From: Candidatus Dormiibacterota bacterium
GTDB taxonomy: Bacteria > Chloroflexota > Dormibacteria > UBA8260 > Bog-877
Assembly: GCA_003164475.1 (NCBI GenBank)
Contig: PLTL01000314.1
Coordinates: forward strand, 1-8,516
Reading direction: 5' to 3'
DNA: 8,516 nucleotides
Position 1 is the stretch's first letter. Every line of letters starts with the position of its first letter. Of this stretch, positions 1-8,509 are shown piece after piece. The notes under the pieces were generated by a model, which had not been told where the DNA came from, did not search any database, and worked only from the letters and a program-made list of their open reading frames with translations. The translations under genes and the position numbers were made by a program.

Positions 1-200
1 GTCGTGAATGTCGAGATCGAGCCGTCGCTCCTTTCAAGCGCCAGGCGCAGTGGCACTCCGCCCACGGCCGAAGCGAGCTCGCGATACCGTCGATTGAACA
101 AAGAGGCCGGTAGAAAACCCCGATCGAGGGGCGCGACAACGGCGGGATTGACCTCGATACCCGCGACTTGCAGACTCAATTTTGGTGCTGCTCCAAGCAT
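1..200 (-). CDS. Unidentified protein, N-terminal part only (runs off the left edge)
   Basis: An open frame on the minus strand begins at ATG (200-198) and stays open to base 1, giving about 66 residues starting MLGAAPKLSLQVAGIEV and later containing LFNRRYRELA and GGVPLRLALERSDGS. It reads like real protein: alternating hydrophobic strands, balanced charge, and no Arg/Pro/Gly excess of the sort that antisense frames show here. A weak purine-rich stretch (GGGGA) lies about 7 nt upstream of the ATG. Its start overlaps the end of the ROK-kinase remnant by 25 bp. Third codon positions are visibly less GC-rich (AAA, TTG, AGT, CAA, AAT, TTT, CTA, TCT) than in the transporter genes, which suggests a different history. 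I do not recognise the family with confidence; an N-terminal extension of a ROK-like sugar kinase is one weak possibility. Function is left open. Confidence 0.5.
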   Translation of the reverse strand, partial: MLGAAPKLSLQVAGIEVNPAVVAPLDRGFLPASLFNRRYRELASAVGGVPLRLALERSDGSISTFT

Positions 201-424
201 GGTTCGTCCCCATCGGGATCACCCAGACCCCCCCTCGGGCACAGAGGCGGCACGTGGGCCAAACGGGGCGGCGGCGTTGACATGAAGCCTCGCGGTGCGC
301 TGGCTGGTGGGAGCGGTGCCGCGGCCGCCGCCACCAGGGCACCCTTGATCGAGCGGCCGCCGACGTCGATGGCGATGACGGCGGGGGCCTCGGCGAGCGC
401 GGCGAGGGAGGCCTCAGTCGCCAA
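176..424 (-). pseudogene. ROK-family sugar kinase, 5' remnant (82 codons)
   Basis: From TTG (424-422) this frame reads [20 protein letters not shown] and then VGGRSIKGALV. The IDVGGxSIKGALV stretch at about residues 16-28 is the phosphate-binding first strand-loop-strand of ROK kinases, the family of glucokinase and N-acetylglucosamine kinase, which phosphorylate imported sugar with ATP. After about residue 35 the sequence degenerates into Pro/Ala/Arg-rich text and stops at 178-176. An intact ROK protein has about 300 residues with a DxGxxxxGE catalytic motif and a zinc CxCGxxGCxE motif, none of which is present. A GGAGAG ribosome-binding site sits 6 nt before the TTG, and the start overlaps the ATPase stop codon, so it was probably the next gene of the importer operon. 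A run of seven G (minus strand; 234-228) lies in the tail, but shifting frame there does not restore kinase sequence. It is most likely a truncated, non-functional GlcNAc kinase gene. Confidence 0.55.
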
Positions 425-1520
425 GCCGCTCTCCGGTTGCCGGATTGAAGACGTGGGCCTCTCCGACCCGGACCGCCAGCACGATGCGATCCCCGACCGT
501 GGGCAGGCGACGGGTGTCGGCCAGGGCCACCAGCCGGAGCGCGGAGGAGCCGCCAGGGGCGTCGACGTGGACCCAAGCATCGGCGCCGGTGTCCTCGACC
601 AGGTGCACGGCGCCGCTCAATAGGGTCGCCCCGTCGCCTCCGCCGTCGAGCGCCCGGGAGAGGGACTCGGGGCGCAGCCCCAGGACCACCTCCGAAAGCC
701 CCGCCTGGCGCGCCGCCGCCGCCGCCGCACCGGGCAGCGGGATGCCGACCTCGCCGGCACGGGCGGCGGTTCCGTCGAACGGCAGCCGGTCCAGGTTCAT
801 CGCCGGCGATCCGACGAAGCCGGCCACGAAGACGTTGCAGGGGTGCTCGTAGAGCCGGCGCGGGGTGTCGCACTGCTGCAGCCGGCCCTCGCGAAGCACG
901 GCCACCCGGTGGCCGAGGGTCATCGCCTCCACCTGGTCGTGGGTGACGTAGACGGTGGTGACCCCGAGGCGCAGCTGCAGGGCGGCGATCTCGGCCCGGG
1001 TCTGGACCCGCAGCTTGGCGTCCAGGTTGGAGAGCGGCTCGTCCATGAGGAAGGCCTGGGGCTGGCGGACGATCGCACGGCCCATGGCCACGCGCTGCCG
1101 CTGGCCCCCGGAGAGCTGCCCGGGTCGCCGGTCGAGCAACGGCTCGATTTCGAGGAGGCGAGCAGCCTCCTGGACGCGCAGCTCGCGCTCCGCCTTCGGC
1201 ACCCGCTGCTGCTTGAGCGGGAAGGCGAGGTTGCCCCGGATCGTGAGGTGCGGATAGAGGGCATAGCTCTGGAAGACCATGGCGATGTCGCGGGCCTTGG
1301 GCTGCATGCCGGTGACCACCCGGCCGCCGATCAGGACCTCGCCGCTGTGCACCACCTCCAAGCCGGCGAGCATGCGCAGCGCCGTGGACTTCCCCGATCC
1401 CGAGGGACCCACCAGGACCATCAGCTCGCCGTCCTCGATCTCCAAGTTCAGGTCGTCGACCGCCGGGGAGGACATCCCCCGGTAGACGCAGGTCGCGTGC
1501 TGGTATTCGACAGTGGCCAT
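414..1520 (-). CDS. Carbohydrate ABC importer ATPase, MsiK/UgpC/MalK type
   Basis: This 368-residue protein is the ATP-hydrolysing subunit of a sugar importer and acts as a dimer on the cytoplasmic face of the two permeases. All nucleotide-binding motifs are intact: Walker [10 protein letters not shown] (38-46), Q-loop VFQSYALYP (Q84), signature LSGGQ (136-140), Walker B AFLMDEP (D160/E161), D-loop SNLD (164-167) and switch histidine in VTHDQVEAM (H194). The last roughly 130 residues match in length and sequence the OB/TOBE regulatory domain of the MalK/UgpC/MsiK class. The length is normal for the family. The ATG at 1520 is preceded by GAGGAG about 11 nt upstream. It lies 44 bp after the second permease and is presumably co-transcribed. 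In Streptomyces the ATPase MsiK is encoded apart and shared by several importers; here it sits within the cluster, so it may be dedicated. Substrate cannot be read from this subunit. Confidence 0.95.
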
Positions 1521-1564: not shown

Positions 1565-2464
1565 TCATCCCTTGACCGCCCCCGCGGTCAGCCCGGCCAT
1601 CATCCGCCGCTGGATGATGAGGAAGAAGATCAGCACCGGGAGGGTGTAGAGGACGGAGCCGGCGAATATCGCGTTCCACTGGACCTGCGCCGTGGGGGTG
1701 ATGAACTCCTCCAGCCAGACCGGGAGGGTCCAGTTGTTGCCGTTCGCCGCCAAGATCGTGGTGGCGTAGACGAGCTCGTTCCAGGCCGAGATGAAGCCGA
1801 AGATCGCGGTCGCCACCAGCCCGGGGGCGATGAGCGGGAAGACCACCGTCATAAAGGCTTTGACGCGGGAGCAGCCATCAGTGAGGGCCGCCTCCTCCAC
1901 CTCCTTGGGCACCGACACGACGAAGCCGCGCAGCATCCAGATGGTGAAGGGGAGGACGGGAGCGATGTAGACCAGGATGAGGCCGGGGATGTTGAGCAGG
2001 TTAAATTGGTTGAGGTAGACGTACATGGGGATCAGGAGCCCCCCGAAGGGGATCATCTGGACCCCGATCAGCATCACCAGCAGGCTGGCGCGACCGCGGA
2101 AGCGGTACCTGGCCACGGCCATGGCGGCACCCACCGAGAGCACCATGGCGATGGCGACCGAGGCGCAGGTGACCTCCAGGCTGTCGAACAGGTGCTCCAC
2201 GAAGTTTCCTGCGAAGGCCTCCTGATAGCCCAGCGCCGAGAAGGGGGCGGGCCACCACGTCGGGGGCGAGGTGATCAGGTCGGAGTTGAGCTTGAACGAG
2301 CCCGACACCATCCAGTACACCGGGAAGAGCCAGAGCAGGGCGGCGATCACGGCGAGAGCGCTGAAGGGAGCGGTGTGGCGGTGCCGGCCTCGGCGCAGGG
2401 CGCGCCTCGGTGCCTCCGTCACCACGACGGTGCTCGACCCGCTGACGGCGGTGGTGCCGCTCAC
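1565..2464 (-). CDS. Sugar ABC importer permease, MalG/DasC-like
   Basis: This 299-residue inner-membrane protein is the second permease of the importer. It has a basic N-terminal tail (RRALRRGRHRH, 20-30), a first membrane segment at about 34-54, and five more hydrophobic segments. The EAA loop that docks on the ATPase is clear at about 188-212 (EVEEAALTDGCSR followed by VFPLIAPG). The short cytoplasmic tail ending RRMMAGLTAGAVKG is typical of MalG-type subunits. The start is GTG (2464-2462), forming a GTGA overlap with the TGA of the preceding permease, so translation is probably coupled. The ribosome-binding site is poor (GGGGG), which fits reinitiation. The partner permease, binding protein and ATPase are adjacent, giving a complete CUT1-type importer. 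DasC/NgcG-type function (chitobiose/GlcNAc) is inferred from the operators and neighbouring hexosaminidases, not from the permease itself. Confidence 0.93.
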   Translation of the reverse strand: MSGTTAVSGSSTVVVTEAPRRALRRGRHRHTAPFSALAVIAALLWLFPVYWMVSGSFKLNSDLITSPPTWWPAPFSALGYQEAFAGNFVEHLFDSLEVTCASVAIAMVLSVGAAMAVARYRFRGRASLLVMLIGVQMIPFGGLLIPMYVYLNQFNLLNIPGLILVYIAPVLPFTIWMLRGFVVSVPKEVEEAALTDGCSRVKAFMTVVFPLIAPGLVATAIFGFISAWNELVYATTILAANGNNWTLPVWLEEFITPTAQVQWNAIFAGSVLYTLPVLIFFLIIQRRMMAGLTAGAVKG

Positions 2465-3462
2465 ATCGCCCCCGTGCTCTTCACCATCTGCCGGACGGCG
2501 AAGAAGGTGACGATGCCGATCAGGACGGTCGCGACAACCCCCGCCGCGGCGCCCTCGCCGAACTTGGCCTGGCCGATTCCGACCTGGAAGATGAACACCC
2601 CCAGGGTCGTGTTATTGCCGATCCCACCCGCCCGATCCACGATATACACCTGATTGAAGACCCCGGCGTCCCATATCACCGACAGGACGGTGAGCAGCAT
2701 GAGGATGGGGAGGAGCAGGGGGACGGTGACCAGGCGCATCTGCGCGAGGAAGCTGGCCCCGTCCACCCGGGCCGCCTCGTAGAGCTCCTCGGGGATCTGG
2801 AGCAGCCCGGCGAAGAGGGCGAGGGCGACGAAGGGGACCGCTCCCCATATCACCATGATGGCCGCCATCGTGAGCTGGACCTGGCCGTTGGCGAACCAGT
2901 CGTGCTGGGCGTTGGGGAAGTTGATGTGCAGGCCGCTCAGCAGCCAGGCGATCGGCCCGTAGGCGCCGTCGAAGAGTTGGATGAAGACCTCCGTGGAGGC
3001 GACCTGGGGAATCGCCCAGCACACCACCAGGCTCACCGAGAGGAAGACCTGGGCCCGGCGGCTGGCCCGCCGCATCAGCAGGGCCAGGGCGAGACCGATG
3101 ATGAGGGTGCCCCCGACCGTGGAGATGGTGAAGAGGAGGGTCTGGTACAGGACCGCGAGCAGGCCCCCCGTGGTCACCAGGTCCACGTAGTTGGTGAACC
3201 CGGTCCACGCGCCGGGGATGCCCTGGATCAGGTTGAAGGATGTGTAGTGCTGAAAGGATTCGAGGACGCTGACAACCAGTGGCGCCCCGATGACGAGGCC
3301 AATCGCCAGGAGCGCCGGGCCGGACAGGCTGTAGGGGAGCCAGCCCGGCACCAGCCGGCGCTGCCTCTGCGGGGTGCCCCCGGCCGGCGGCGCCCCCCGC
3401 CCCCGGGGGAAGACAGAGAAGCGCCGCCGAGACGTGGCTGGCGTTGTCTCGACGGCGCTCAT
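2461..3462 (-). CDS. Sugar ABC importer permease, MalF/DasB-like
   Basis: This 333-residue protein is the first membrane subunit of the importer. The N-terminal roughly 40 residues are Arg/Pro-rich and cytoplasmic, followed by a membrane segment at about 46-67 and further segments near 106-129, 137-158, 197-221, 248-270 and 300-323. The EAA coupling loop is at about 226-250 (EELYEAARVDGASF followed by VTVPLLLPIL). The overall layout is that of MalF/UgpA/DasB proteins without the large MalF periplasmic insertion. The start ATG (3462-3460) has only a weak upstream AGGA, 45 bp after the binding-protein stop. Lower translation than the binding protein is expected, as is usual in such operons. The end overlaps the next permease by 4 bp. 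Substrate is inferred only from context. Confidence 0.93.
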   Translation of the reverse strand: MSAVETTPATSRRRFSVFPRGRGAPPAGGTPQRQRRLVPGWLPYSLSGPALLAIGLVIGAPLVVSVLESFQHYTSFNLIQGIPGAWTGFTNYVDLVTTGGLLAVLYQTLLFTISTVGGTLIIGLALALLMRRASRRAQVFLSVSLVVCWAIPQVASTEVFIQLFDGAYGPIAWLLSGLHINFPNAQHDWFANGQVQLTMAAIMVIWGAVPFVALALFAGLLQIPEELYEAARVDGASFLAQMRLVTVPLLLPILMLLTVLSVIWDAGVFNQVYIVDRAGGIGNNTTLGVFIFQVGIGQAKFGEGAAAGVVATVLIGIVTFFAVRQMVKSTGAM

Positions 3463-3507
3463 GTTTCAGGTCGATCCTAAGTCCTTCGGGTCAGCCCTGC
3501 TTCAGTG

Positions 3508-4917
3508 CTATGCGCCTGGATTCAGGGCCGTCTTCAGCGCCGTGTCGGCAGTCGACGTTGCGCTCGCTATCGATGCGTTGCCGGTCATGATGCTTCCGAG
3601 CATGTCGGTGTAGATGTTGTCGCTCTCGGCCGTGGACTCACCGGGGCTTTCGGGGGTGAACCAGCTGTTCGAGGCGGCGTTGATCGCGACCTCGTTCGCA
3701 GCGTTGCCCGCCGCAGCAACAGAGAAGAGGCTGGTGGTGTTGGGGATGGTCCCTGGAGCGTCCGACTCCCAGGTCGTCAACTCCGCGGTGGAGGTGATGT
3801 ACTGGATGAACTTGACCGCTGCCGCCTTGTCCCCGCTGCTGGCCCTCTCGGCCACGCCGATGTCGGAGCCGCCCAGGAAGACGGGTGCCGGGCCACTCAC
3901 GCCGGGCTGCGGAAACACCGACCAGTCGCTGGCCGAGTTGTAGGGGGCCGCGGCCGCACCCTGGACCACACCGAGCTCCCAGGAGGACTCGATGGCCATG
4001 GCACTCGTCCCGTTCTCTAGCGCGGTCGCGAAGTTGTCGCTCTGCTGCTCGGCGGGGGCGCAGGTGGAGATCTTGTTGTACAGGTTCTGGATTGTGCTCA
4101 GCTCCGTCTGGTTGGACGAGGACCCGAGGGTCGGGGTCCACGTGCCGTTGGCATAGGTGGCGATGGGGTCGGCCGCTGACGGGGTGCCGGCGTCAGCGGA
4201 GGCGAGAAAGCCGAAGATCTGGTACCAGTCCTCACCGCCGAGGTAGAGGGCGCAGAAGTTCTTGGTGCTCGAGAACGTGCTGTCGAGCGTCTCGCCGTCG
4301 GTGAGCAGCTGGCTGACGGTGGTCGGCACACTGGTGATGCCGGCCTTCTGGAACATCGCGGTGTTGTAGACGACGTCGCGGTCACCGGCGAGCAGGGGCA
4401 CGGCGTACAGCGTGTTGTTGTAGGTGGAGGACTCCTTGAGTCCGGTCAGCCAGGTGCTCTGGTTGGGGAAGGTGTCGGAGCTAAGGTCGACAAGGCCTCC
4501 GGCGGCGGCGAACCCGGGCACGTAAGTGTTGCCCATGTCGATCACGGCCGGGGGGTTGCTGCTCCCCATCGCGTCGAGCTCCTGTGTCGGTTGGTTGCCC
4601 CACACCTGGCACGTGACGGTGACGGTCCAGCCGGGGTGCAGCTTCTGGAAGCCGTTGACCCATTGGCCCGTAACGGTCGAGCCCGACCCCGCCGTCGCGT
4701 TACAGCTCTGTCCGGTTCCGGACCCGGTCAGCTGGACGGGGGCGTCACCGGCCATCATCCAGACATTCAGAGTCCCCGAGCTGGGCATCGAGGTCGAGGA
4801 CGAAGAGGAGGCCGACGTCGAAGTCCCAGAGGTCGAGGATCCGCAGGCGGCGACCCCTGCCGCGAGGGCCACCGCGAAAGCGGCGGTGGCAAAGTCGAAG
4901 TACCGATGGTGTCTCAA
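3508..4917 (-). CDS. Extracellular sugar-binding lipoprotein of the ABC importer (DasA/NgcE-like)
   Basis: This 469-residue family 1 solute-binding protein captures the sugar outside the membrane and delivers it to the two permeases. It has a lipoprotein signal: basic start (MRHHRYF), hydrophobic core, lipobox VAAC with C25, then a Ser/Thr-rich tether to about residue 48. The mature part shows typical traits: GTLNVWMMAGD (first strand), a central YAVPLLAGDRDVVYNTAMF segment, the NGTSAMAIESSWELG region, and GGSDIGVAERASSGDKAAAV near the C-terminal helices. Four further cysteines (C72, C103 and two in NFCALYLGG and STCAPAE) could form disulfides. The start is TTG (4917-4915), supported by GGAGAAGG about 4 nt upstream; no nearby ATG preserves the signal peptide. 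It is the first gene behind a perfect dre palindrome 49 bp upstream, so GlcNAc/DasR-type control and a chito-oligosaccharide ligand are likely but not proven. Confidence 0.92.
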   Translation of the reverse strand: MRHHRYFDFATAAFAVALAAGVAACGSSTSGTSTSASSSSSTSMPSSGTLNVWMMAGDAPVQLTGSGTGQSCNATAGSGSTVTGQWVNGFQKLHPGWTVTVTCQVWGNQPTQELDAMGSSNPPAVIDMGNTYVPGFAAAGGLVDLSSDTFPNQSTWLTGLKESSTYNNTLYAVPLLAGDRDVVYNTAMFQKAGITSVPTTVSQLLTDGETLDSTFSSTKNFCALYLGGEDWYQIFGFLASADAGTPSAADPIATYANGTWTPTLGSSSNQTELSTIQNLYNKISTCAPAEQQSDNFATALENGTSAMAIESSWELGVVQGAAAAPYNSASDWSVFPQPGVSGPAPVFLGGSDIGVAERASSGDKAAAVKFIQYITSTAELTTWESDAPGTIPNTTSLFSVAAAGNAANEVAINAASNSWFTPESPGESTAESDNIYTDMLGSIMTGNASIASATSTADTALKTALNPGA

Positions 4918-4965: not shown

Positions 4966-4983
4966 TACTGGTCTAGACCAGTA
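4966..4983. promoter_or_regulatory. DasR-type operator (dre1), perfect 18-bp palindrome
   Basis: The sequence TACTGGTCTAGACCAGTA is identical to its own reverse complement over 18 bp. Its core TGGTCTAGACCA is that of the known DasR-responsive element (dre). DasR is a GntR/HutC-family repressor of chitin and GlcNAc genes whose DNA binding is released by glucosamine-6-phosphate. The site lies 49 bp upstream of the binding-protein start codon and at the predicted transcription start, fitting repression of the importer. A GntR relative of the NagR type could use the same site. Confidence 0.85.
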
Positions 4984-5110: not shown

Positions 5111-5140
5111 TTGTCAAGCCGCCCGGCTTCGTCGCAGAAT
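5111..5140 (+). promoter_or_regulatory. Putative promoter of the nagA-remnant/GH20 operon
   Basis: TTGTCA (5111-5116; one mismatch to TTGACA) is followed after 18 bp by CAGAAT (5135-5140; two mismatches to TATAAT). The predicted start falls near 5147, in the middle of dre2, mirroring the arrangement on the other strand. The hexamers are plausible but imperfect. Confidence 0.4.
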
Positions 5141-5153
5141 GGTCTAGACCAGT
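5138..5153. promoter_or_regulatory. DasR-type operator (dre2)
   Basis: AATGGTCTAGACCAGT matches dre1 at 15 of 16 positions; the single difference (A for C at the second base) breaks one pair of the palindrome. The flanking AT of CAGTAT is also shared with dre1. Its centre is 171 bp from that of dre1, and it lies 30 bp upstream of the rightward start codon, covering the predicted transcription start. This puts the hexosaminidase genes under the same regulator as the importer. Confidence 0.82.
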
Positions 5154-5183: not shown

Positions 5184-5399
5184 ATGCGTCTGGGAGTTGC
5201 GGCCGTCCAGGTGGATGGCCATGGAGCCTCCCTGGAGACGGCCCCGGGCGCCGCCAGCCGGGTCCGGGCCCGCCCGATCCGCCGGCCCGACCTTGGGGAG
5301 CTGCGTACGGGGGCGACCGCGGATGTCGTGGTCCTCGATGACTCTGTCCAGGTGCAGCGGACGCTGGTCGGAGGCGAGGAGGTGTGGCCGCGCGGGTGA
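5184..5399 (+). CDS. 71-residue frame derived from GlcNAc-6-phosphate deacetylase (NagA): N-terminus joined to C-terminus
   Basis: The first dozen residues (MRLGVAAVQVDG) look like the start of an actinobacterial NagA. From about residue 33 the frame reads PDLGELRTGATADVVVLDD and then VQRTLVGGEEVW, the characteristic NagA/amidohydrolase C-terminal strand region. Intact NagA has about 380 residues and removes the acetyl group of GlcNAc-6-phosphate through a metal-binding TIM barrel. All barrel and metal ligands (HxH, Glu, two His, Asp) are missing, so deacetylase activity is not possible. The simplest reading is an in-frame internal deletion. Start, ribosome-binding site and stop are intact and dre2 lies 30 bp upstream, so it should still be translated. 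Its TGA overlaps the GTG of the GH20 gene, so it could act as a leader that couples translation. It could also be a plain relic. Confidence 0.6.
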   Translation: MRLGVAAVQVDGHGASLETAPGAASRVRARPIRRPDLGELRTGATADVVVLDDSVQVQRTLVGGEEVWPRG

Positions 5400-6988
5400 G
5401 GGCCACCATGGGGGCAACCCTGGCCGTGGCCCTCGGCGTGGCGAGCTGCCTCGGCGCCTGCGGCTCTGCGGCCCCGGCCAAACCGAGTGTGGTGCCGATG
5501 GCGGACGTGATCCCGGCTCCGGTGTCGGCGCATCCCGACCCGGGTGCGGACTTCAGCCTGACCGCGGCCACGGTCCTGGTCTCGCCAGGAGGGGCTGCGA
5601 CCACCCCGACCGATTGGCTGGCGGCGTTGCTGCGGCGGGGCACCGGCTTCTCCCTTCCCGTGGTCGCGCCGGGGGGGCACGCATCGTCGCGGATCGTCCT
5701 GAAGGTGGACGGCAGCGACCTCACCATCGGTGACCATGGCTACATTCTGGAGATCAGCAACTCCCAGGTCCTGATCCGGGCGAACGCCGGGGAGGGGCTG
5801 TTCGACGGCGCCGAGACGCTGCGCCAGCTGCTGCCGGCGACGATCGAAACCGCGCACAGCCCGGGACCATGGGCGGTGGAGGGCGGCCAGATCACCGACT
5901 ACCCGCTCTACCCTTGGCGAGGGGCGTCCCTGGACGTGGCCCGCCACTTCTTCCCGGTGTCCGACGTGGAGCGCTACATCGACGAGGTCGCCCTCTACAA
6001 GATCGACGTGCTGCACCTCCACCTGAGCGACGACCAGGGCTGGCGGATCGCCATCTCCGCCTACCCCACCCTGACCAGCGTGGGGGGCAGCACGGCGGTC
6101 GGGGGCGGGACGGGCGGCTACTACACCCAGGCCGAGTACCAGCAGATCGTGGCCTATGCCGCGGGCCGCTACATCACCGTGGTCCCGGAGATCGACATGC
6201 CGGGGCACAGCAACGCAGCGCTGGCGTCGCTGCCCCAGCTCGACTGCGGCGGCAAGGTGCCGCCCGTCTACACCGGGATCGACTCGGGCATCAGCACCCT
6301 GTGCGTTGGGACCGCGGCGACCGGCCAGTACGTGAGCACCGTGCTCGGGGAGCTGGCCGCCATCACCCCTGGGCCCTACATCGACATCGGCGGCGACGAG
6401 GACACCCTCCTCTCCGGGTCGGAGTACGACGCCTTCGTCAACCAGGCGGCGCAGACGGTGGTCGCCGATGGCAAGATCCCGGTGGGCTGGGCCGACATCG
6501 CGACCACGGACGACGCGCAGGGCACGACGGCCACGCTTCCGACCGGCACCCTCACGGAGTACTGGAACTACCAGAGCGCGCCCCCTGACACCGGCCAGAA
6601 CTCCTCGGAGAAGCTCAAGTTGATCTTCGCCCCGGCCGACCACGCCTACCTTGACCAGAAGTACGACCCCGGCACCACCCTCGGCCTGGACTGGGCCGGC
6701 CCGGTGAGCGTGGAGCAGGCCTACGACTGGGAGCCCACCGACTACGGCGTCCCCAGCGGCGAGATCGAGGGCGTGGAGGCGGCACTGTGGAGCGAGACGC
6801 TGACCTCCATGGCCGATATCGAATACATGGCCTTCCCCCGTCTTCCCGGGATCGCCGAAATCGCCTGGTCACCCCCCTCCACCCACAGCTGGTCTGCCTA
6901 CCGGGAGCGGCTTGCCGCCCAAGCCCCACGCTGGCAGGCGATGGGGATCAACTACTACCGCGCCCCTGACGTTCCCTGGCCGTCCTGA
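5396..6988 (+). CDS. GH20 beta-N-acetylhexosaminidase, predicted lipoprotein
   Basis: This exo-enzyme removes terminal GlcNAc (or GalNAc) from chito-oligosaccharides by substrate-assisted catalysis. With the GTG at 5396 (530 residues) it has an Arg-containing start, a hydrophobic core and a lipobox LGAC with Cys near residue 24, so it is probably anchored outside the membrane. An N-terminal GH20b-type domain (about 40-150) is followed by the catalytic barrel. Visible active-site residues are R183 (LDVARHF), D212/D213 (HLSDDQGWR), D267 and H271 (PEIDMPGHS), catalytic D334-E335 (IGGDE), the acetamido pocket W365, W390 and W465, Y418/D420 (AYLDQ) and E467. Their spacing agrees well with Streptomyces plicatus SpHex. 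Start choice: GTG 5396 overlaps the upstream TGA (GTGA), with GAGGAGG 13 nt before it. GTG 5384 is too close to that site, and ATG 5408 would lose the basic residues. It heads a tandem pair with the next gene. Confidence 0.93.
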   Translation: MRATMGATLAVALGVASCLGACGSAAPAKPSVVPMADVIPAPVSAHPDPGADFSLTAATVLVSPGGAATTPTDWLAALLRRGTGFSLPVVAPGGHASSRIVLKVDGSDLTIGDHGYILEISNSQVLIRANAGEGLFDGAETLRQLLPATIETAHSPGPWAVEGGQITDYPLYPWRGASLDVARHFFPVSDVERYIDEVALYKIDVLHLHLSDDQGWRIAISAYPTLTSVGGSTAVGGGTGGYYTQAEYQQIVAYAAGRYITVVPEIDMPGHSNAALASLPQLDCGGKVPPVYTGIDSGISTLCVGTAATGQYVSTVLGELAAITPGPYIDIGGDEDTLLSGSEYDAFVNQAAQTVVADGKIPVGWADIATTDDAQGTTATLPTGTLTEYWNYQSAPPDTGQNSSEKLKLIFAPADHAYLDQKYDPGTTLGLDWAGPVSVEQAYDWEPTDYGVPSGEIEGVEAALWSETLTSMADIEYMAFPRLPGIAEIAWSPPSTHSWSAYRERLAAQAPRWQAMGINYYRAPDVPWPS

Positions 6989-7018
6989 ACGGCCACCATG
7001 CCTAGCGAGGGAGACCCA

Positions 7019-8509
7019 ATGGCAGCGAACCTCGGCGACATCATCCCGGCCCCACTGTCCGTCGATCCAGATCCGGGGGGCGATTTCACCATCGACTCTG
7101 CGACCGTGATCGCCCGATCGGGCGGCTCCGAAGCAGCATCCGTCAGCGACTGGCTGGCGGAGCTGCTCCGCCACGGTACCGGCTTCGCGCTCCCCGTGGT
7201 GGCGGGCGCAGCCCGTGCCGGCAGCGTGATCGCCCTGGAGCTCGGCGACGCCGACTCGAGCCTGGGAGACGAGGGGTATAGGCTGGCGGTGCGACCCGGA
7301 TCACTGGTGATCCGCGCTGCCGCCGGGGCCGGCCTCTTCCACGGCGCCGAGACCCTGCGCCAGCTTCTTCCCGCCGGCATCGAGACCGCCGGGGGACGCG
7401 GGCCGTGGATCGTGAGCGGCGGGCAGATCGTCGACCGCCCCCGCTATCCGTGGCGAGGGGCGATGCTGGACGTGGCCCGTCACTTCTTCAGCGTCGCCGA
7501 CGTGGAGCGTTACATCGACGAAATCGCCCTCTACAAGATCAACATCCTGCACCTCCATCTCACCGATGACCAGGGCTGGCGGATCGCCATCAACGGCTGG
7601 CCGCAGCTGACCGCAGTGGGCGGCAGCACCGAGGTGGGCGGCGGAATCGGTGGCTATTACACCCAGGACCAGTACCGGCAGATCGTCGCCTATGCCGCCA
7701 GCCGCTACGTCACGGTGGTCCCAGAGGTCGACGGCCCCGGCCACGTGAACGCGGCGCTCGCCTCCTACCCGGAGCTGACCTGCAGCGGCACCGCCCCGCC
7801 CCTGTACACCGGCCTCGATGTCGGGTTCAGCTCCCTCTGCGTCGGCAAGGCAGTCACCTACCGTTTCCTGGACGACGTGCTGGGTCAGCTGGCGGCCATG
7901 ACCCCCGGGCCCTACATCGCCATCGGCGGGGACGAGGCCAAGAGCACGCCACCGGAGGATTACGTGGAGTTCATCGAGAAGGCAGTGCAGATCGTCGCCG
8001 CCCACGGCAAGACGGCGGTCGGCTGGTCCGAGATGGCGGCCGTCCCGCTGCCCTCCGGCTCGGGCATCGTCGCCGAGTACTGGGACACCTCCGACTACGG
8101 AGAGAGCCTGCGCACTGCGGTGCAGGACGACGTCAGGATCGTGCTGGCCCCCGGCAACCGCGCCTACCTCGACCAGAAGTACGACGACAACACCACCCTG
8201 GGGCTGGTCTGGGCGGGCCCGACCAGCGTCGAGACCGCCTACGACTGGGACCCGACCTCCTACCAGGTGCCCGCTGGCCAGGTGGAGGGCGTCGAGGCCC
8301 CCCTCTTCAGCGAGACCCTAACCACCATGAGCGATATCGAGCAGATGGCCTTCCCCCGCCTGCCCGGCATCGCCGAGATCGGATGGTCACCGCAGTCCAC
8401 CCATGACTGGTCGAGCTACCGGCTGCGGCTGGCCGCACAGGCGCCGCGCTGGGAGGCGATGAACCTCGACTTCTACCGTTCCCCGGAGGTCAGCTGGCCG
8501 GCCGGCTGA
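7019..8509 (+). CDS. Second GH20 beta-N-acetylhexosaminidase, leaderless paralogue
   Basis: This 496-residue protein aligns with the preceding GH20 almost end to end, from IIPAPLSVDPDPGGDF to the last PEVSWPAG, but has no signal peptide or membrane segment and is predicted cytoplasmic. It retains R154, the TDDQGWR motif, D238, H242, catalytic D305-E306 (IGGDE), W336, W355, Y383/D385 and E432. Two differences stand out: the pocket tryptophan is Phe (F430, in APLFSET), and PEIDMPGHS has become PEVDGPGHV. ATG 7019 was chosen because AGGGAGA ends 6 nt upstream; ATG 6998 would add seven residues but has no ribosome-binding site. The gap to the first GH20 is 30 bp, so co-transcription is likely. 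It probably splits imported chitobiose-like sugars, though its specificity may differ. The stop is 7 bp from the window end, so nothing downstream can be seen. Confidence 0.92.
   Translation: MAANLGDIIPAPLSVDPDPGGDFTIDSATVIARSGGSEAASVSDWLAELLRHGTGFALPVVAGAARAGSVIALELGDADSSLGDEGYRLAVRPGSLVIRAAAGAGLFHGAETLRQLLPAGIETAGGRGPWIVSGGQIVDRPRYPWRGAMLDVARHFFSVADVERYIDEIALYKINILHLHLTDDQGWRIAINGWPQLTAVGGSTEVGGGIGGYYTQDQYRQIVAYAASRYVTVVPEVDGPGHVNAALASYPELTCSGTAPPLYTGLDVGFSSLCVGKAVTYRFLDDVLGQLAAMTPGPYIAIGGDEAKSTPPEDYVEFIEKAVQIVAAHGKTAVGWSEMAAVPLPSGSGIVAEYWDTSDYGESLRTAVQDDVRIVLAPGNRAYLDQKYDDNTTLGLVWAGPTSVETAYDWDPTSYQVPAGQVEGVEAPLFSETLTTMSDIEQMAFPRLPGIAEIGWSPQSTHDWSSYRLRLAAQAPRWEAMNLDFYRSPEVSWPAG

What the first reader, a model, noticed from the sequence alone, without database searches (positions are those of the whole stretch)
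5184..5399. An internally deleted nagA kept as a translated, dre-controlled mini-gene coupled to GH20
A 71-codon frame joins the NagA N-terminal residues to its C-terminal strands in frame, with full Shine-Dalgarno, ATG, stop and an upstream operator. The GTG of the secreted GH20 overlaps its TGA. A dead fragment would normally lose its frame; here it may persist because the GH20 has come to depend on translation through it, that is, a relic turned into a leader peptide. A small stand-alone beta-sandwich-like protein is a less likely alternative.
Basis: partly seen in the sequence, partly recalled or inferred. Interest (0 to 1): 0.7.

Follow-up and report, generated by a model that had tools for sequence, protein, structure and literature searches.

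The report
Gutted nagA remnant before GH20 gene
In an uncultured bacterium, the gene for a sugar-deacetylating enzyme has lost its whole middle but kept its start, its end and its link to the next gene, perhaps because an unrelated enzyme took over its job.

Summary
Frame 5184-5399 is NagA with about 295 codons cut out in frame: roughly residues 1-12 joined to the last ~57. Three unnamed relatives of a Dormibacterota MAG carry full-length nagA (365-367 aa) at the same place, directly before GH20. The deletion is no assembly slip: that MAG (97% identical) and a metagenome protein share it. SD, the adjacent dre and a 4-nt GTGA overlap with GH20 are intact; two of the three relatives have similar overlaps, so the coupled geometry is inherited. 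Selection on the peptide is not shown: 4 of 71 residues differ between two strains, 2 of 12 conserved NagA columns have changed, and the frame would often stay open by chance. Likely cause: beyond the ATPase gene nagK is also a stub, and a kinase plus a PIG-L deacetylase stand there. Of 18 phylum genomes with that kinase, the 8 with PIG-L lack NagA and the other 10 have it, though the split follows the kinase tree. Best reading: a non-polar deletion of a displaced NagA, its remnant now a leader cistron for GH20. The leader role is inferred.

The parts
5184..5399 (+). 71-codon in-frame nagA remnant (leader cistron candidate)
5184..5219 (+). NagA N-terminal codons 1-12; the exact junction is not resolved (about codons 6-13)
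   Evidence: residues 6-12 by eye; edges printed
5220..5399 (+). NagA C-terminal codons to the stop, 61-71% identical to relatives
4967..4982 (.). dre palindrome, 16/16 to the recalled site, transporter side
5138..5153 (.). dre-like palindrome, 15/16, before the remnant; a pair 167-171 bp apart is also in L001, L017, L018, L019
5174..5179 (+). Shine-Dalgarno AGGAGG of the remnant
   Evidence: read
5377..5382 (+). AGGAGG inside the nagA tail, likely SD of GH20; GGGAGG in the nagA tail of G002 and G019, GGGGAGG in G004
   Evidence: read
5396..5399 (+). GTGA overlap of GH20 start and nagA stop
   Evidence: GTGATG in G019, ATGA in G004; in G002 the listed GH20 start lies about 30 nt downstream
5396..6988 (+). 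GH20a, lipoprotein-like start by eye; extra copy in this lineage
   Evidence: PF00728, PF02838; identities
6998..8509 (+). GH20b, closest to the single GH20 of relatives; no signal peptide by eye
3508..4917 (-). ABC sugar-binding protein (PF01547), 38-46% identical to that of relatives
2461..3462 (-). ABC permease 1
1565..2464 (-). ABC permease 2
414..1520 (-). ABC ATPase (UgpC/MalK-like)
318..413 (-). 5' stub of a ROK kinase gene (nagK-like); the matching stretch 318-478 (82.6% to L018) includes the ATPase end
1..200 (-). start of a 477-aa ROK-like sugar kinase gene; its rest and a PIG-L gene lie in L072

Best explanation
The 71-codon frame is what is left of a once complete nagA in the cluster [ABC transporter <- dre dre -> nagA-GH20-SIS deaminase]. 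A deletion of about 295 codons removed the catalytic barrel in frame. It spared the dre, SD and start codon on one side and, on the other, the nagA tail that carries the GH20 SD and the overlapping GTGA. NagA had become dispensable because a ROK-like kinase and a PIG-L/LmbE-type deacetylase had taken the slot of nagK, so the acetyl group is removed by another enzyme. The remnant is probably still translated and works in cis as a leader cistron: ribosomes ending at its TGA restart on GH20. Its peptide probably has no function of its own. Shown: the deletion, its frame, its place, its sharing between strains, the nagK stub, and the kinase/PIG-L pair in the near-identical G001. Inferred: translation, coupling, what the PIG-L enzyme acts on, and the order of events.
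For: Full-length nagA at the same place in G002, G004 and G019. Same deletion in L001 (97.2% over 7.5 kb) and in P0001, the representative of an 11-member cluster. Short stop/start overlaps with GH20 in G019 and G004. nagK reduced to a 5' stub; the kinase and PIG-L genes lie between ATPase and ROK regulator where G002 has nagK, and the regulator flank is 96% identical to G002. In G001 the NagA profile finds only one N-terminal fragment on another contig. Of 18 kinase-bearing phylum genomes, PIG-L is in 8 and NagA in the other 10. Six relatives with NagA (G002, G004, G019, G031, G011, G014; three of them just under the curated cut-off) lack such a PIG-L. Overlapping pairs were shown to be coupled in H. 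volcanii and, with one exception, in E. coli (PMC6728339, passages).
Against: No RNA or ribosome data. No unusual RNA fold at the GH20 start (z -0.97 for window 5340-5440, +0.86 for 5360-5430, +0.22 for L001), and GH20 has its own SD, so it could start alone. The PIG-L/NagA split follows the kinase tree (at least 2 changes, 1 forced), so it may rest on one or two events. The PIG-L gene was read in L072, not in the window, and L072 seems to carry a chimeric join in its ATPase gene. G001 is a draft MAG and may miss genes. No nagA remnant was found in the 8 other PIG-L genomes. G004's permease 2 and ATPase were not on the contigs read.
Confidence: 0.6

Rival explanations
1. Plain decaying relic: the in-frame deletion is chance (1 in 3), the frame is still open because little time has passed and GC content is high, and GH20 starts on its own SD.
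For: Frame kept in 82% of simulations after 5 substitutions, 63-74% with frameshifts. Window and L001 differ at 5 nt and 4 aa, dN 0.027, dS 0.016; random changes would be about 71% nonsynonymous. Omega of the remnant clade 0.31 against 0.066, neutrality not rejected (2dlnL 0.86). 2 of 12 near-invariant NagA columns changed. A 499-codon antisense frame is open through the same stretch.
Against: SD, start, stop, GTGA overlap and the adjacent dre are unchanged between the two strains, while bases between dre and SD and in the frame differ. These are few sites.
Confidence: 0.3
2. A small stand-alone protein made from the NagA ends, kept for a function of its own.
For: AF2 draws strands and two short helices.
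Against: Mean pLDDT 63.9, pTM 0.47 on a 3-row alignment; only about 12 N-terminal residues remain; 4 of 71 residues differ between strains; the protein search, which sees only proteins of similar length that share words, listed P0001 alone.
Confidence: 0.04
3. The whole block (transporter, remnant, GH20a) came in by horizontal transfer with nagA already deleted and replaced the native block.
For: Binding protein 38-46% and permeases 40-53% identical to those of relatives that are 74-93% among themselves, while the regulator flank is 96% identical to G002; GH20a is an extra copy; the remnant groups with G019 rather than G002 (FastTree support 0.87).
Against: No donor found; the remnant alignment has 55 codons and some G004 and G002 genes were partial. 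Compatible with the main reading; it differs in where the deletion happened.
Confidence: 0.35
4. Assembly collapse or strain-mix artefact.
For: Metagenome sources; G001 contig C135 looks chimeric in the ATPase gene.
Against: Same junction in the window, L001 and P0001, each with substitutions of its own.
Confidence: 0.02

Closest known systems
NagA, N-acetylglucosamine-6-phosphate deacetylase (TIGR00221)
   Same: Both ends of the frame match full-length NagA at the same place in three relatives.
   Different: The barrel with the active site is gone; it cannot be a deacetylase.
Translationally coupled overlapping gene pairs (termination-reinitiation; PMC6728339, passages seen)
   Same: Stop and start share GTGA, with an SD inside the upstream gene's tail.
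   Different: The upstream gene is a gutted remnant, and coupling has not been measured.
Leader minigene of axe-txe (PMC8708949, abstract and outline seen)
   Same: A short frame before a gene that acts in cis on its expression.
   Different: That one has two codons and a proposed mRNA-stability mechanism; this one comes from an enzyme gene by deletion.
DasR regulon of Streptomyces (PMC6167110, passages seen)
   Same: dre palindromes, ABC transporter, GH20, SIS deaminase, a GntR/UTRA regulator nearby.
   Different: nagK and nagA are stubs; a PIG-L deacetylase and ROK-like kinase stand in.
Thermococcus diacetylchitobiose deacetylase, LmbE-like (PMC4101496, passages seen)
   Same: PIG-L-type deacetylase in amino-sugar breakdown.
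   Different: Archaeal, acts on the disaccharide; the substrate here is unknown.

Membership tests
NagA (functional enzyme) | Complete amidohydrolase barrel with metal-binding residues | tested here: not met
   71 aa against 365-367 aa; TIGR00221 11.1 bits against cut-off 225.65
NagA (descent) | N and C ends homologous to NagA, same genomic place | tested here: met
   the N end is only about 12 residues
Coupled overlapping gene pair | Stop and start codons overlap by 4 or 1 nt with an SD upstream | tested here: met
   GTGA 5396-5399, AGGAGG 5377-5382, if GTG 5396 is the start
Coupled overlapping gene pair | Downstream translation falls when upstream translation is stopped | not testable with these tools
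   needs a reporter assay
Domesticated leader peptide | Frame conserved beyond neutral expectation | tested here: inconclusive
DasR regulon | dre palindrome in the promoter | tested here: met
   16/16 and 15/16 to the recalled site
DasR regulon | GntR-family regulator that binds it | tested here: inconclusive
   GntR/UTRA gene at L072 9212-10000; binding not testable
PIG-L/LmbE deacetylase (L072 6556-7431) | PF02585 above cut-off | tested here: met
   52.6 bits against 28.2
ROK kinase (L072 5156-6586) | PF00480 match | tested here: not met
   no Pfam or NCBIfam match at E 0.01; some homologs are named ROK family protein or NBD/HSP70 family sugar kinase by sources

The most novel reading that the evidence does not exclude
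A NagA-independent GlcNAc pathway, made of a ROK-like kinase and a PIG-L deacetylase, spreads as a pair and displaces NagK and NagA in this phylum; here it is caught just after the switch, with the old nagA turned into a translated leader cistron that GH20 expression needs.
Probability: 0.3. Interest if true: 0.72.

Novelty: new variant of a known kind. Interest (0 to 1): 0.5.

Why it matters
It looks like a natural non-polar deletion: an enzyme is removed while the expression signals of the next gene in the operon are spared. It also points to a testable replacement of NagA by a PIG-L deacetylase, with an either/or pattern in 18 genomes (few independent events), which would change pathway predictions for genomes that seem to lack NagA.

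Tried and rejected
Own genome of the window: none held. Protein search of the 71 aa listed only P0001 (only proteins of similar length that share words are candidates). RNA folds near both starts gave nothing unusual. Codon maximum likelihood on 5 sequences (omega 0.42 against 0.057, 2dlnL 2.84) and then on 6: not decisive. A second NagA-like fragment in G001 (C111, L007) is a divergent N-terminal piece with an unrelated tail, kept apart. Microhomology at the deletion edges: printed, no clear call. Beta-sandwich idea: weak model, no fold search made. Paper searches: PIG-L with NagA and ROK, 0 papers; at least 4 of 5 displacement terms, 0 papers; chitobiose deacetylase with glucosamine kinase, 0; Dormibacter with chitin, 0; the titles and abstract starts listed (2 of 2; 20 of 424; 7 of 7) show no such claim. 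This is an open-licence library only. Dropped before the neighbourhood count: of 22 kinase-bearing genomes, G305 (split over contigs), G236 and G297 (weak hits) were left out and G001 was read apart, leaving 18.

Full report
What is there. The frame at 5184-5399 is real: ATG, 71 codons, TGA, an AGGAGG four bases before the start and a dre-like palindrome 30 bases before it. Residues 12-69 align with the C-terminal end of a solved NagA (7nut, E 1.8e-5). Library profiles see this only weakly (PF07969 E 0.001, TIGR00221 E 0.14).

Relatives. A scan of genome contigs with GH20 found L001 (MAG of Ca. Dormiibacterota, fen_879), 97.2% identical over 7.5 kb, with the same 71-codon frame. Of 101 genomes searched around it, 6 have a GH20 match: G001 itself, G002, G004, G019 and two weak ones. 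G002 and G019 have ATPase, two permeases and a binding protein on one strand, two dre sites 167-168 bp apart, then nagA and GH20, with the SIS deaminase after GH20. In G004 the contigs read show the binding protein, the start of permease 1, the dre pair, nagA, GH20 and the SIS gene; in G002 and G004 the GH20 gene appears split over two contigs. In all three, nagA is full length (366, 365, 367 aa) and lies directly before GH20. Compared with them, the frame is about residues 1-12 plus the last 57, so about 295 codons are missing in frame. MAFFT placed only the first five residues on the N side; residues 6-12 were matched by eye. The deletion is not an assembly slip: window, L001 and P0001 share it and each has substitutions of its own. 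P0001 stands for 11 members; only the representative was seen.

Coupling geometry. In the window the GH20 GTG at 5396 shares GTGA with the nagA stop, with AGGAGG 13 bases before it in the nagA tail. G019 has GTGATG and G004 ATGA at the same joint; in G002 the listed GH20 start lies about 30 bases further on. So short overlaps occur with full nagA in two of three relatives. Overlapping pairs were strictly coupled in H. volcanii and, with one exception, in E. coli (PMC6728339, passages). An RNA fold that would force coupling is not seen.

Is the frame under selection? Window and L001 differ at 5 bases and 4 residues of the 71 codons (dN 0.027, dS 0.016, ratio about 1.7). The six other genes compared have ratios from about 0.2 (GH20b) to 0.7 (permease 1). 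With six sequences the codon model gives omega 0.31 for the remnant clade and 0.066 for full-length nagA in the same 55 codons; neither equality with the background (2dlnL 2.26) nor omega 1 (0.86) is rejected; another, less likely topology gives 2.96 and 2.44. Of 12 columns at least 85% conserved among 30 full-length rows from G001's relatives, the remnant has changed 2; of the 30, 22 changed none, 7 changed one, and L045, which looks rearranged there, changed 5. After five random substitutions 82% of simulated frames stay intact, and about 71% of random changes would be nonsynonymous. So an open frame is no argument for use, and the peptide looks relaxed, though five changes are few.

Why nagA could go. 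Beyond the ATPase gene, G002 and G019 have a ROK nagK-like gene. In the window only its 5' end is left (318-413, within a stretch 82.6% identical to L018), followed by the start of another kinase gene. G001 contig C135 (L072) matches window 1-213 at 99% and continues with a 477-aa kinase-like protein, a PIG-L deacetylase (PF02585, 52.6 bits), then a ROK regulator and a GntR/UTRA regulator on the other strand. The regulator stretches are 96% identical to those of G002, so the pair sits in the nagK slot. Caution: the first part of the ATPase gene in L072 is about 58-90% like the window per 60-base step and then jumps to 93-100% at about window 980-1040, near where the L001 contig begins (1014); L072 is probably chimeric to the left of this point. 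In G001 the NagA profile finds only one N-terminal fragment, on another contig.

Either PIG-L or NagA. A search for the kinase scored a capped list of 7999 homologs, but among G001's 101 relatives only G001 has it, apart from two weak hits. Of 400 genomes drawn from the phylum, 22 match. In 18 neighbourhoods, PIG-L lies next to it in 7, NagA next to or within about 1.2 kb of it in 7, neither in 4, both in 0. Over whole genomes NagA is found in 10 of the 18 (9 over the curated cut-off) and PIG-L in exactly the other 8 (in G444 it is on another contig). By hand arithmetic such a split has a chance of 1 in 43,758 if rows were independent; they are not, since on the kinase tree the label needs as few as two changes, with one forced. 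G001 has the PIG-L; six relatives with NagA lack it. No nagA remnant was found in the 8 other PIG-L genomes, so this one may be caught at an early stage.

Remodelling. Binding protein and permeases of the window are 38-53% like those of relatives, which are 74-93% like each other. GH20a is an extra copy; GH20b is closest to the relatives' GH20 and has no signal peptide by eye. A block transfer that brought the deletion with it is a serious alternative for where the deletion arose.

Verdict. A nagA gutted in frame: shown. A leader cistron for GH20: likely but unproven. Displacement of NagA by a PIG-L enzyme: supported by gene content, enzymatic role untested.

Noticed in passing
window 214-413 (-): nagK is also reduced to a 5' stub; between the matching blocks the window has 124 bp and L072 only 31 bp.
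   Followed up: partly
L072 5156-7431: ROK-like kinase plus PIG-L deacetylase pair; PIG-L and NagA exclude each other in 18 kinase-bearing phylum genomes.
   Followed up: partly
window 6998-8509: GH20b has no signal peptide by eye, so may be cytosolic; the GH20 of G004 (L016 3-542) also seems to lack one.
   Followed up: no
L072 about 3930-4500 (G001:C135): ATPase gene appears chimeric with another transporter's ATPase; probable assembly join in the MAG.
   Followed up: partly
L007 1034-1540 (G001:C111): A second NagA-like N-terminal piece with an unrelated tail; its stop overlaps the start of a HAD hydrolase frame.
   Followed up: partly
G070:C124 12347-13337: NagA hit split into two frames that overlap slightly, perhaps a frameshifted nagA.
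   Followed up: no
L001 3946-3961: The dre on the transporter side has 2 mismatches in L001 but none in the window.
   Followed up: no
window 1565-4917 (-): Binding protein and permeases look foreign to the cluster of the relatives.
   Followed up: partly
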